A stretch of DNA of 64,000 nt from Gemmatimonadota bacterium. GTDB taxonomy: Bacteria; Gemmatimonadota; Gemmatimonadetes; Palauibacterales; Palauibacteraceae. The position numbers were made by a program, and so were the translations under genes. Of the stretch, positions 25,154 through 29,044 are shown piece by piece. Position 1 is the first letter of the stretch. Each line of letters opens with the position of its first letter. The DNA lies in assembly GCA_022825725.1 (NCBI GenBank), contig JAJDWE010000061.1, forward strand, positions 1 to 64,000, in the 5' to 3' direction. The notes under the pieces are model-generated. The model was not told where the DNA came from and did not search any database. It was given only the letters and a program-made list of their open reading frames with translations.

Positions 25154-26562
25154 ACGCCATCCCCGCCCCTCGCGTGACGAACCGGCGGCTTGGACGCTGC
25201 CTGCTCGCGGGTTCTTTGCTTGCCGCCGCGGCTGCGGCCACGGGAGACATCGGCCGGCTCTCCGCGCAAACGCCGGAGCAGCGCTACTCCGATTGGGTCC
25301 GCCCGGGCTTCCGCCCGCAGGAATACGAGTTTCGACGCAACCGGATCCTCGACGGCCTGCGCGCCACCGGAGGCGGCCTCCTGCTCGTTCCCTCGTCGGA
25401 CGGCATCACGCACGGCGAGACCTTCCGGCAGCTCGAGGACTTCTGGTATCTGACGGGGCTGGAGGTCCCACAATCGATGCTCGTCCTCGACGCGCGACGC
25501 GATGTTTCAATTCTATTCATGCCGCAGCGCGACCCGCGCTTCGAGAACCCGGGCCGGCCGAACGATTTCCCGGGTCGGCCGCTGCTGGACGACTACCAGA
25601 TCCGCGGCATCGGCGGCGCCGACGACTACCGGGACATCGCCGAACTCGGTGGCTTTCTCCGCGAGCGCGTGGGTGTGGGCGAGGTGCTTCGGGTCAACGC
25701 CGGCGCTCCGGGTGAGGTCCCAGATCCGATCGTCCCGCTTGTCGGAAGTCTCGACGCCACGGCGTCTCTGATCCGGCGTCTTCGGGACGACTATCCGGAG
25801 GCGGAGCTCGCCAACGCGTTCGAGATCGTCGCGCGTCTGCGCATGGTGAAGTCGCCCGCCGAGATCATGCGCATGCGCCGCGCCGCCGATGCAACGATGC
25901 GCGGGATTCGGGCGGCTGCGGACCTCATCCGTCCCGGGGTGGATGAACGCACGCTCCAGGGCGAGTTCGAGCGCGTCTGCCGCGCATCAGGCGCCCAGTC
26001 CATCCCGTTCACGCCCATCATCAAGTCGGGTCCGAACAGCCTGTGGCCGTGGCGGGTCCTCGCGGCCCACTACAACCGACGCAACCGGCGGCTGGAGGAC
26101 GGCGACCTCGTGATCTTCGATGTCGGGTGCGAGCTGAACGGATACGTGAGCGACGTGGGACGGACCTTCCCGGCGAACGGGGCGTTCACCGAAGTCCAGC
26201 AGGAGAAGCTCCTCGTGAGCACTGGGGCGGCGGAGGCCGTGATCGCCGCCGTGCGCCCCGGTGTCACGCTGCGCGAACTCACGCAGGTGGCCTACGATGC
26301 GATCCCGGACGAGGAGGAGCCGTACATGCAGACCCCCTCCTTCTTCGGCCACCACATCGGGCTTTCGACGGGAGATCCCGCCCTTCTCGACGAACCGCTC
26401 GCGCCCGGAATGGTCTTCACCGTCGAGCCGTGGTACTACAACCACGACCTCGGCGTCTCCGTGTTCGTGGAAGAGGTCGTCCTCGTCACGGAGGACGGCG
26501 CCGAAATCCTCACCGATGCCCTCCCCCGCGACCCCGATGCCCTGGAGGCACTGGTCCCGTAG
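25150..26562 (+). CDS. exported Xaa-Pro aminopeptidase (M24)
   Basis: 470 residues. The N-terminus carries a signal (RCLLAGSLLAAAAAATG) ahead of an aminopeptidase-P N-domain (YEFRRNRILDGL, FWYLTGLEVPQSM). The pita-bread domain has the five metal ligands: Asp and Asp in FDVGCELNGYVSDVGRTF, His in GHHIGLSTGDP, Glu in FTVEPWYYN and Glu in VFVEEVVLV. It removes an N-terminal residue before proline, here outside the cytoplasm. GTG 25150 overlaps the Tsx-like gene's stop by 4 bp. A peptidase coupled to a nucleoside porin is an unusual partnership; shared nutrient control is the simplest reading. Confidence 0.92.
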   Translation: MNAIPAPRVTNRRLGRCLLAGSLLAAAAAATGDIGRLSAQTPEQRYSDWVRPGFRPQEYEFRRNRILDGLRATGGGLLLVPSSDGITHGETFRQLEDFWYLTGLEVPQSMLVLDARRDVSILFMPQRDPRFENPGRPNDFPGRPLLDDYQIRGIGGADDYRDIAELGGFLRERVGVGEVLRVNAGAPGEVPDPIVPLVGSLDATASLIRRLRDDYPEAELANAFEIVARLRMVKSPAEIMRMRRAADATMRGIRAAADLIRPGVDERTLQGEFERVCRASGAQSIPFTPIIKSGPNSLWPWRVLAAHYNRRNRRLEDGDLVIFDVGCELNGYVSDVGRTFPANGAFTEVQQEKLLVSTGAAEAVIAAVRPGVTLRELTQVAYDAIPDEEEPYMQTPSFFGHHIGLSTGDPALLDEPLAPGMVFTVEPWYYNHDLGVSVFVEEVVLVTEDGAEILTDALPRDPDALEALVP

Positions 26563-26605: not shown

Positions 26606-27778
26606 CTATCCCGGCGGCTCCTCCGTCCCCTCCCGCAGCACGTCGAGATAACTGTCGTAGGCGAAGATCTTGCCTCGCTGGCGACCCGTCACCTCGCTGA
26701 CCAGGCCCAGCTCCTCGAGCAGCCTCAGGGAGGCGGCGACCGTCGGAGCGGAAAGGCCGGTGCGTTCCGCAATCCCGTTGATCCCGTCGACGGGGCGTTC
26801 CGCCAGCGCTCGGTGCACCCGCAGGGCCGAACCGGCCCGCCGACCCTCTTGAGCGATGCGATCGCGGTTGGCGGCGACAATTTCGCTCGCGGATCTGGCG
26901 GTCGCGACGGCTGCCTCCGCCACGTGCTGCACGCCTTCGAGGAAGAAACGCAACCAGGCTTCCCAGTCTCCCGTCCCGCGCATTTCGTTGAGGAGTTGGT
27001 AGTAGGTGTCCCGCTGTTGCTTGAAGTAGAGGCTGAGATACAGGAGGGGTTCGCGCAGGAGTCCGGCATCGCACAGCATCAACGTGATCAGCAGGCGACC
27101 CAGACGCCCGTTTCCATCCAGGAACGGATGAATCGTCTCGAACTGCACATGCGCGAGCCCGGCCTTGATGAGCGCGGGCAGGTCATCGTCGGTTGCGTGG
27201 ATGAACTGTTCGAGCGCGGCCATGCACTCTTCCACACGGTTCGGCGGCGGCGGGACGAACGCCGCGTTGCCGGGACGCGAGCCCCCGATCCAGTTCTGCG
27301 ACCGCCGGAACTCGCCGGGCATCATCGTCGCGCCGCGGCCGCTCGCGAGCAGCTTGGCGTGCACCTCTCGCATGAGGCGGTTCGAGAGCGGGAAGTCGTC
27401 GTCCCGCAGGCGCCGGATCCCGTGATACAGCGCGGCCACGTAGTTCGATGTCTCCACGACGTCGTCCAGCAGGACCCCGGATGCCCCTCCCGCTTCGTGC
27501 AGCATGAGATCGGAAAGGGAAGACTGCGTGCCTTCGATCTGGGACGAGAGCACAGCTTCTTTGCGTACGTATCCGTAGACAAAAAACGCGGCATCGGGCA
27601 GAAGTTCGGTTACCGCATCGAGGCGTCCCAGGGCGGCGACGGCCGCCTCGAATGGCCGTCGCAGTCCCTCCCGCAGATCCACATCGGGCGAGGGCGGGAG
27701 AGGTACGGGGATGAAGGCGCGGACGGTCTCCCCGCCGGCGACTGTAACGTCGTAGGTGCCTGTCGCTTCGCGTCTCAT
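26606..27778 (-). CDS. Fic protein (AMP-transferase type) with C-terminal winged helix
   Basis: 390 residues from ATG 27778 (MRREATGTYD). The Fic motif HPFLDGNGRLGR (His217) is intact, as is the preceding flap region. An N-terminal inhibitory motif of the (S/T)xxxE(G/N) type is present as SSQIEG (Ser78 to Gly83), placing it among Fic proteins whose inhibitory helix lies at the N-terminus of the same chain. About 330-390 (GINGIAERTGLSAPTVAASL) is a winged-helix DNA-binding domain, so it may autoregulate. Fic enzymes AMPylate or deAMPylate protein targets such as gyrase. Longer readings past 27778 enter the AT-rich repeat region and were not used. The targets are unknown. Confidence 0.92.
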   Translation of the reverse strand: MRREATGTYDVTVAGGETVRAFIPVPLPPSPDVDLREGLRRPFEAAVAALGRLDAVTELLPDAAFFVYGYVRKEAVLSSQIEGTQSSLSDLMLHEAGGASGVLLDDVVETSNYVAALYHGIRRLRDDDFPLSNRLMREVHAKLLASGRGATMMPGEFRRSQNWIGGSRPGNAAFVPPPPNRVEECMAALEQFIHATDDDLPALIKAGLAHVQFETIHPFLDGNGRLGRLLITLMLCDAGLLREPLLYLSLYFKQQRDTYYQLLNEMRGTGDWEAWLRFFLEGVQHVAEAAVATARSASEIVAANRDRIAQEGRRAGSALRVHRALAERPVDGINGIAERTGLSAPTVAASLRLLEELGLVSEVTGRQRGKIFAYDSYLDVLREGTEEPPG

Positions 27779-27893
27779 CCTGGGTGACCCCGGGGGCTTT
27801 GTGCCTGTATGTCGCAAGAGGGTGCAGATCCAGCGAGAACGCCGGCGAATATGTGAAGCCACCTCCTGCTTAGCAAGAGATATTGCCGTTCGC

Positions 27894-28014
27894 TTTCGTT
27901 AGGTTCCGGCGAACGAAGGAACTTTTGCTTACGCGCTTTCGGAGCGTCAACAAGAAAAGCGAACCGGCGTTTTCTTTTCTTACGTGTCGGCTAACGAAGG
28001 AACTTTTTCTTAGG
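27894..28014. repeat. AT-rich region with two 40-bp direct repeats
   Basis: Two imperfect copies of an element about 40 bp long (27894-27933 and 27976-28014). Their cores share AACGAAGGAACTTTT (27912-27926 and 27993-28007), and the central 24 bp (27908-27931, 27989-28012) match at 22 positions. The first copy also contains TTCGTT and AACGAA as inverted arms around an 11-nt loop. The region is far richer in A and T than its surroundings and lies between the divergent Fic and DUF1684 genes. A second small direct repeat, GCCGGGTTGCA (28025-28035 and 28039-28049), follows. It is most likely a double promoter or operator; a remnant of a mobile element is possible. Confidence 0.6.
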
Positions 28015-28066
28015 TCCACCTGCTGCCGGGTTGCACGAGCCGGGTTGCAGGGCCCATGCTGGCGAC

Positions 28067-29044
28067 ATGAGAACGACGGAGCGGTTGAACGATGCTGGCC
28101 GGACAGCCGTTGTCGGGCTGGCGATGGCACTGCTTGGGGCCGCCGTGACGGGCTGCGCCCGTGACATGTGGCCGGAGCCGGCTCCGGTGGATTCCGAGGT
28201 TCTGGCGGCCGAGCATGAGGAGTGGCGCGAGGGGCGACGGAACAGCCTCGCGAACCCCAACGCGGGGGTCATCAGCTGGGATGGGCTCTTCGAGTTGTCT
28301 GAAGGGCCGAACACGTTCGGCTCGGATCCGTCTGCGGCGATCGTTCTGCCCGAGGAAGACGCGCCGCCCCTGGCTGGCACGCTGTACCTCGAGGATGGGA
28401 CCGTGCGTCTCGTCCCCGAAACCGGGAGCGGTCTGCGTCTGAGAGAGCAGGTCACCGGGACAGCAGGTGAACCCGTCACGGAACCCATGCCGCTGCCCGA
28501 CGACCGGAGCGAAGGGACGGTCCGCCTGGCGCTGGGCTCGCTCGGGATGCGGGTCCACGCGGAGCCGGGGACCGACCGGCTCTGGCTCCGGGTGTGGGAC
28601 ACGGATGCCCCGCGCCTCGACGCCTTCGAGCTTCCCGAGTACTTCCCGATCACGAACGAATGGCGCGTCTCGGCGCGGTTCGAGCCCTATGCGGAGCCGC
28701 GCACCGTAACGCTGGGGGATGTACGGGGCGGGACGCTCGAGAACACGGCGCCGGGGGATCTGGTCTTCCGCGTGAACGGAGCCGAACACCGCCTCATGGC
28801 CTTCGCCGGCGCGTCAAGCCGCTCCTACTTCATCAGCCTGTGGGACTCGACCGCGGTGACGGACACCTACCAGGCGGGCCGCTACATGCGTGCGCCCTTC
28901 CCGGACGACGACGGCTGGACGACGATCGACTTCAACCGCGCCTACAATGCGCCGTGCGCCTTCACGCCCTACTCCGTGTGCAGCCTCCCGCCACGCGAGA
29001 ACTACCTCCGCTTCTCCGTAACCGCCGGAGAAAAGCGCCCGTAA
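28067..29044 (+). CDS. DUF1684 lipoprotein
   Basis: A 325-residue exported protein with lipobox AVTGC (lipidated near Cys27) after MRTTERLNDAGRTAVVGLAM. The mature part follows the DUF1684 pattern: HEEWREGRRNSL, WDGLFELSEGPNTFGSD, a catalytic-like core YFPITNEWRVSARFEPY, DTYQAGRYMRAPF and the hallmark DFNRAYNAPCAFTP near the end. No biochemical role is established for DUF1684 that I can recall. The chosen start, ATG 28067, is the one that yields the lipoprotein signal; an upstream in-frame reading adds a non-signal stretch. It is divergent from the Fic gene across the repeat region and faces the GMC oxidoreductase gene 15 bp away. Confidence 0.85.
   Translation: MRTTERLNDAGRTAVVGLAMALLGAAVTGCARDMWPEPAPVDSEVLAAEHEEWREGRRNSLANPNAGVISWDGLFELSEGPNTFGSDPSAAIVLPEEDAPPLAGTLYLEDGTVRLVPETGSGLRLREQVTGTAGEPVTEPMPLPDDRSEGTVRLALGSLGMRVHAEPGTDRLWLRVWDTDAPRLDAFELPEYFPITNEWRVSARFEPYAEPRTVTLGDVRGGTLENTAPGDLVFRVNGAEHRLMAFAGASSRSYFISLWDSTAVTDTYQAGRYMRAPFPDDDGWTTIDFNRAYNAPCAFTPYSVCSLPPRENYLRFSVTAGEKRP

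What the first reader, a model, noticed from the sequence alone, without database searches (positions are those of the whole stretch)
27779..28066. AT-rich repeat island between Fic and DUF1684 genes
About 120 bp of strongly AT-biased sequence in a GC-rich genome holds two 40-bp direct repeats plus nested inverted repeats (TTCGTT/AACGAA, GTTCGC/GCGAAC). It sits between divergent genes, one of which encodes a winged-helix Fic protein that could bind it. The base composition also fits a mobile or foreign remnant.
Basis: partly seen in the sequence, partly recalled or inferred. Interest (0 to 1): 0.5.

Follow-up and report, generated by a model that had tools for sequence, protein, structure and literature searches.

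The report
Operator array of a self-regulating defence toxin
The AT-rich repeat island is most likely the switch of the neighbouring gene, a phage-defence-type enzyme whose own DNA-binding tail probably docks on it to keep the gene down, and comparable switches, often with other letters, stand before many related genes in other bacteria.

Summary
The island is real: a 142-bp array (27871-28012) with two 45-nt direct repeats, 80% identical, 81 bp apart, found nowhere else in the genome. On the fic strand it reads as four imperfect palindromes (21, 32, 21, 31 bp; spacers 9, 19, 9) with half-sites like TAASGAAA. It is not a remnant: its length is 141-144 bp in nine orthologs, while the leader beside it ranges from 26 to 83 nt. 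It follows fic, not the place: four orthologs elsewhere keep it with no DUF1684 or M24 gene found nearby. The Fic protein resembles SoFic (anti-phage defence) and ends in a winged helix. Strong palindromes precede 63 of 116 non-redundant homologs against 11 of 119 neighbouring ORFs; the window's own palindromes are below that threshold. Best explanation: Fic dimers bind the array through the winged helix and repress their own promoter, as shown for Yersinia CccR. Binding was not tested. Half-site type tracks recognition-helix residue 344, but shared ancestry is not excluded. Fic plus array is an accessory cassette: in three relatives DUF1684 follows M24 directly. Verdict: a new variant of a known kind (autoregulated toxin operator).

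The parts
27992..28012 (-). Palindrome P21a (21 bp, imperfect), array unit 1
   Evidence: sequence; register kept in orthologs
27951..27982 (-). Palindrome P32a (32 bp, imperfect), array unit 1; 9-bp spacer 27983-27991 before it
   Evidence: sequence; inverted arms in window and orthologs
27911..27931 (-). Palindrome P21b (21 bp, imperfect), array unit 2; 19-bp spacer 27932-27950 before it
   Evidence: sequence
27871..27901 (-). Palindrome P31b (31 bp, imperfect), array unit 2; 9-bp spacer 27902-27910 before it; its last half-site overlaps the putative -35
   Evidence: sequence
27848..27876 (-). Putative fic promoter TTGCTA - 17 nt - CATATT; inferred, 8 of 12 consensus bases, below the scan threshold
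   Evidence: sequence and ortholog alignment; the scan found none
26606..27778 (-). fic gene: SoFic-like Fic_N + Fic (HPFLDGNGRLGR) + C-terminal winged helix (helices 312-327, 333-340, 344-356; strands 360-362, 371-374)
   Evidence: Pfam, PADLOC SoFic E=1.5e-114, AlphaFold2 mean pLDDT 92, Foldseek to SoFic 3eqx/3zec
28067..29044 (+). Divergent DUF1684 gene; possible second target of the array
   Evidence: Pfam
25267..26562 (+). M24 peptidase (start of the gene not determined, lies further upstream); in three relatives directly followed by DUF1684
   Evidence: Pfam

Best explanation
The island is the operator array of the fic gene. The Fic protein (a SoFic-like AMP-transferase of the phage-defence type) is taken to be a dimer, as Sofic is, with one winged helix per subunit. 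The dimers bind convergent half-sites (TAASGAAA-like) in four palindromes upstream of, and overlapping, the fic promoter and hold down their own transcription, so that the toxic enzyme stays low until a trigger such as infection relieves it. Shown here: the array, its conserved geometry, its linkage to fic rather than to the locus, the predicted winged-helix fold, and enrichment of palindromes before homologs. Inferred: binding, repression rather than activation, the promoter, the trigger, and any effect on DUF1684.
For: Array length 141-144 bp with 4 gap columns of 144 in 9 orthologs, against a stretch from the putative -10 to the ATG of 26-83 nt with 75 gap columns of 89. Four of the nine (L136, L137, L139, L141) come from other assemblies, and no DUF1684 or M24 relative was found in the held flanks (about 1.5 kb or less) of any of L136-L214. 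Palindrome score 9 or more in the 200 nt before fic in 63 of 116 loci, against 155 of 3480 shuffles, 12 of 108 downstream regions and 6 of 115 intragenic stretches, and 11 of 119 regions before neighbouring ORFs, Fisher p=3.6e-14. Of 21 further usable SoFic-family loci, 10 score 9 or more. Winged helix by Pfam and AlphaFold2. No other place in the genome matches the core. Residue 344 goes with half-site type: F/Y/V/L/I, 37 TTATT-type to 3 TAASG-type; other residues 4 to 16, in 60 classifiable loci of 114. Precedent: CccR, a Fic-HTH protein, footprints an inverted repeat in its own promoter and represses it (PMC9755527, passages).
Against: No binding, footprint or expression data. The window's own array scores only 7 in the 200-nt palindrome test (8 with 260 nt), below the threshold; of its eight aligned orthologs three reach 9 (L036, L037, L038), so for this clade the case rests on geometry and conservation. 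53 of 116 homologs do not reach 9 and 6 do not reach 7. The residue-344 association has only 2 supported independent pairs, so shared ancestry may explain it; operator similarity follows the catalytic domain as closely as the recognition helix (partial correlations 0.151 and 0.136). Two other Fic paralogs of this genome lack such an array: L260 scores 7; L261 scores 9 but with a GC-rich hairpin. The promoter is weak by consensus. Palindromes near the start also precede Fics in which Pfam finds no HTH (L250, L251, L257-L259). The 2025 Sofic paper treats the C-terminal domain as a regulator of toxicity; the abstract, introduction and first results sections read do not mention DNA binding (passages).
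Confidence: 0.77

Rival explanations
1. The array is a shared operator that controls both divergent genes, and its main client is DUF1684.
For: It lies 54 nt before the DUF1684 ATG, and the 31/32-9-21 order runs towards DUF1684, the order seen towards fic in other loci. In three relatives without fic at this place DUF1684 directly follows M24, so the cassette gave it a new upstream region.
Against: Four orthologs keep the array with no DUF1684 found in the held flanks. Palindromes are enriched before fic homologs in other surroundings.
Confidence: 0.1
2. The sites bind another factor (a host regulator or an antitoxin-like partner), not Fic itself.
For: No binding data; Sofic of E. coli H397 has a separate small antitoxin, AS1, downstream (PMC12249575); palindromes also precede Fics without a Pfam-detected HTH.
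Against: Half-sites differ between Fic subgroups, yet similar ones recur in records titled with different phyla, which suits a regulator encoded with its operator. The Fic carries a winged helix, and CccR binds its own promoter.
Confidence: 0.1
3. The island is a mobile-element remnant or dispersed repeat.
For: Low GC; fic plus array is an accessory cassette.
Against: One place in the genome, constrained length in nine orthologs.
Confidence: 0.01
4. The repeats act as RNA structure (leader or terminator).
For: Inverted arms could pair.
Against: The array lies upstream of the putative -10 (inferred); no Rfam match at E up to 1 over 27000-29000; no terminator-like site.
Confidence: 0.02

Closest known systems
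CccR of Yersinia pseudotuberculosis (Fic + C-terminal HTH, PMC9755527, passages read)
   Same: Fic enzyme with C-terminal HTH; inverted repeat in its own promoter; dimer needed for binding; negative autoregulation (shown there)
   Different: CccR has one 46-nt site (10-N26-10) and is a T6SS effector; here a tandem array of four palindromes (21/32/21/31 bp) with other half-sites, and no secretion evidence was sought
SoFic / Sofic anti-phage defence protein (PDB 3eqx, 3zcn; PMC12249575, part read)
   Same: Fold and domain order; SoFic profile match E=1.5e-114
   Different: No operator or DNA binding in the parts of the Sofic paper seen; the NCBIfam SoFic equivalog cut-off is not met (157 vs 550 bits)
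CbFic2 of Coxiella (PMC10628234, passages read)
   Same: Fic with C-terminal winged helix that binds DNA; DNA binding changes enzyme activity
   Different: DUF4172-type, tested with random DNA, no operator described in the passages read
Type II toxin-antitoxin operators (general knowledge; listing only)
   Same: Palindromic operators in an autoregulated toxin promoter
   Different: Here toxin enzyme and DNA-binding domain are one polypeptide

Membership tests
SoFic-type Fic proteins | Fic_N + Fic domain with HPFxDGNGR motif | tested here: met
   Pfam; HPFLDGNGR invariant in 52 aligned homologs
SoFic-type Fic proteins | SoFic profile and fold match | tested here: met
   PADLOC SoFic E=1.5e-114; Foldseek 3zec/3eqx TM 0.76-0.82 by query length
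SoFic-type Fic proteins | NCBIfam equivalog cut-off (NF046030) | tested here: not met
   157 vs 550 bits: a relative, not that equivalog
SoFic-type Fic proteins | Protection against phage | not testable with these tools
   needs a plaque assay
Autoregulated Fic-HTH (CccR-like) | C-terminal HTH | tested here: met
   HTH_5 above cut-off; winged helix in the AlphaFold2 model
Autoregulated Fic-HTH (CccR-like) | Inverted repeats before its own gene | tested here: met
   imperfect palindromes, in register in orthologs; palindrome score of the window alone only 7-8
Autoregulated Fic-HTH (CccR-like) | Single 10-N26-10 operator | tested here: not met
   four palindromes of 21-32 bp
Autoregulated Fic-HTH (CccR-like) | Protein binds and represses | not testable with these tools
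   needs EMSA, footprint, reporter

The most novel reading that the evidence does not exclude
SoFic-like phage-defence toxins are self-repressing DNA sensors. The operator array is an inbuilt DNA antitoxin: binding several dimers both silences the gene and locks the enzyme, and phage-driven loss of the array's DNA or of its occupancy releases active toxin. Operator and recognition helix co-diversify so that neighbouring copies do not cross-talk.
Probability: 0.15. Interest if true: 0.8.

Novelty: new variant of a known kind. Interest (0 to 1): 0.5.

Why it matters
[quoted passage not shown] A conserved operator array before such genes points to one answer, transcriptional self-repression through the C-terminal winged helix, and gives natural operator/helix pairs to test, also on plasmids of named, sequenced bacteria (Aminobacter, Agrobacterium, Picosynechococcus, Thermus).

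Tried and rejected
Dispersed repeat or MITE: whole-island and core searches of the own genome found only this place. A gapped pattern matched nothing, not even the array, and says nothing. Known RNA: no Rfam match at E up to 1 over 27000-29000. Terminator or consensus promoter: none by scan. Small antitoxin gene in the island: short ORFs exist but were not tested for conservation, so not excluded. Helix-specific coevolution: weakened by the partial Mantel test and the independent-pairs test. Fic without HTH as a control was inconclusive: L254 scores 7 and L256's best palindrome (9) lies 173 nt upstream, but Fics with no Pfam HTH hit (L250, L251, L257-L259) have palindromes near the start.

Rows dropped: 158 loci reduced to 116 by protein 3-mer overlap over 0.75 (none was dropped for a short upstream); 2 truncated proteins left out; 23 without the simple motif, which one search replaced by an alignment column; 54 of 114 with unclassifiable half-sites left out. 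In one search, of 30 fetched loci 3 had no start and 6 were duplicates; several of the remaining 21 starts look wrong but were kept. The SoFic family search listed more matches than the 30 loci fetched. Start codons were chosen by rule, some uncertain (L087, L138, L181). Control ORFs are mechanical. In one search my DUF1684 query was out of frame; one search repeats it correctly and only one search is used. The leader lengths printed miss trailing columns; one search gives them whole.

Full report
Observation. The 288-bp gap (27779-28066) between a fic gene (minus strand, ATG beginning at 27778) and a DUF1684 gene (plus strand, ATG at 28067) holds two 45-nt direct repeats, 80% identical, 81 bp apart. 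GC falls to 49%, against 57-77% in surrounding 120-base windows. The 20-nt core at up to 3 mismatches was met in 0 of 100 shuffles and at no other place of the 3.49-Mb assembly; the island as a whole matches only itself.

Anatomy. On the fic strand I read four imperfect palindromes with half-sites like TAASGAAA: 21 bp (28012-27992), spacer 9, 32 bp (27982-27951), spacer 19, 21 bp (27931-27911), spacer 9, 31 bp (27901-27871). Palindrome lengths and spacers differ by about 10, roughly one helical turn. Over 116 loci, 15 distances between centres of long and short palindromes exceed all 20 shuffles by more than 2 loci, the strongest being 20 (21 loci, expected 0.35) and 36 (13 loci, expected 0.5); the centres of the 21- and 32-bp palindromes of one unit of the window are about 36 apart. 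This fits phased binding and does not prove it. The last half-site overlaps a putative weak promoter TTGCTA-17-CATATT (inference; the scan found none).

Conservation in the genus. Of 17 genus genomes, five have an intact copy of this fic (89-100% identity) with the array: own, G003, G011, G012, G015. The 21-nt core pattern matched 7 of 17: four of these five (G015's array is too diverged), G001 and G016, and G014 with 3 mismatches, not followed up. G001 and G016 have a broken fic (residues 211-390 with a stop) and one array unit left. In the five, the array stays in register while the leader drifts (39% identity, 27 gap columns). The M24 peptidase lies beyond fic in four of the five; it was not found in the held flank of G015. 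In L011, L013 and L015 (G008, G010, G009) M24 is directly followed by DUF1684; G008 and G010 carry a 60-65% identical fic elsewhere. So fic plus array is an accessory cassette; which state is ancestral was not settled.

The array follows fic. Four orthologs 70-78% identical (L136, L137, L139, L141) have arrays of 142-144 bp alignable with the window's: over nine orthologs 141-144 bp and 4 gap columns of 144, against 26-83 nt and 75 gap columns of 89 from the putative -10 to the ATG. No DUF1684 or M24 relative (E up to 1e-4) was found in the held flanks, about 1.5 kb or less, of L136-L214. L138 and L140, in the same identity range, were not aligned: the start of L138 is uncertain and L140 shows no clear array of this type.

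Generality. From 80 genome loci (the best 80 kept of 572), 70 viral-contig loci and 8 genus records I took 158 upstream regions and kept 116 non-redundant: 71, 43 and 2. A palindrome score of 9 or more in the 200 nt before fic is reached in 63 of 116, against 155 of 3480 shuffles, 12 of 108 downstream regions, 6 of 115 intragenic stretches, 11 of 119 regions before neighbouring ORFs and 2 of 35 before window ORFs. The window itself scores 7 (8 over 260 nt), its orthologs L035 to L038 score 7, 9, 10 and 9, and L136, L137, L139 and L141 score 7-8: this clade is not among the best examples. Of 21 further usable SoFic-family loci of the phylum, 10 reach 9. By eye, many other loci have a palindrome of about 31-34 bp followed by one of 20-22 bp close to the start codon, with half-sites such as TTATTCA or TTATTAAAGG. 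The window's order (21 then 32 towards fic) is the reverse of theirs, which I cannot explain.

Protein. Fic_N, Fic and an HTH_5 hit above cut-off; PADLOC SoFic E=1.5e-114; below the NCBIfam SoFic equivalog cut-off. The AlphaFold2 model (52 sequences, mean pLDDT 92) ends in a winged helix with recognition helix 344-356; the best PDB folds are 7cb8 and SoFic 3zec/3eqx. In 60 classifiable loci of 114, F/Y/V/L/I at 344 goes with TTATT-type half-sites (37 to 3) and other residues with TAASG-type (4 to 16), but only 2 supported independent pairs exist, and operator similarity follows the catalytic domain as well as the helix.

Mechanism and literature. In CccR the HTH of a Fic protein binds AGATAATCAT-N26-ATGATAATCT in its own promoter, and the promoter reporter rises 3.3-fold without CccR (PMC9755527, passages). 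CbFic2 binds DNA through a winged helix and changes activity (PMC10628234, passages). The 2025 Sofic paper (PMC12249575; first quarter of the text and search passages) gives the C-terminal domain a role in toxicity and describes a downstream antitoxin, AS1; I saw no DNA binding there. A term search of the 2013 SoFic structure paper (PMC3667792) found no mention of a winged helix, DNA binding or promoter. The rows listed (all but cut to the best rows) show no paper on operators of SoFic proteins; preprints and most subscription journals are not held. I conclude that the island is a self-repression operator array (0.77), a new variant of the CccR kind.

Limits. Palindrome enrichment does not show binding. 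53 of 116 homologs, the window's among them, fall below the threshold. Two other Fic paralogs in the own genome show no such array (L260 scores 7, L261 a GC-rich hairpin). Palindromes near the start also occur before some Fics in which Pfam sees no HTH, so either the HTH is missed or another factor binds there.

Noticed in passing
L245 (Aminobacter aminovorans plasmid pAA04), 470-4143: The Fic-winged-helix homolog sits between a TIR-domain gene and Hachiman genes (HamA, then a helicase), as in a defence island, with a 32-bp palindrome starting 56 nt before the start codon.
   Followed up: partly
L009, L010 (G001, G016): Broken fic copies that keep one array unit next to DUF1684: decay in progress.
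   Followed up: partly
L037, L038 (genus orthologs), array region: The two array units of one genome share variants (GAGGCG in both units of L037, GACGCG in both of L038), as if homogenised.
   Followed up: no
L251, L252, L255, L257, L258 and L250, L259: DUF4172-type and Streptomyces Fic genes also have palindromes close to the start codon (scores 7-10), so such operators may extend beyond SoFic-like proteins.
   Followed up: partly
L011, L013, L015 versus window 28067-28153: Similarity of DUF1684 between loci with and without the fic cassette starts only at residue 30.
   Followed up: no
L044, L048, L050 upstream of fic: Another Fic subgroup of the same genus has TGGCACACAA-type repeats upstream, unlike those of the window.
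   Followed up: no
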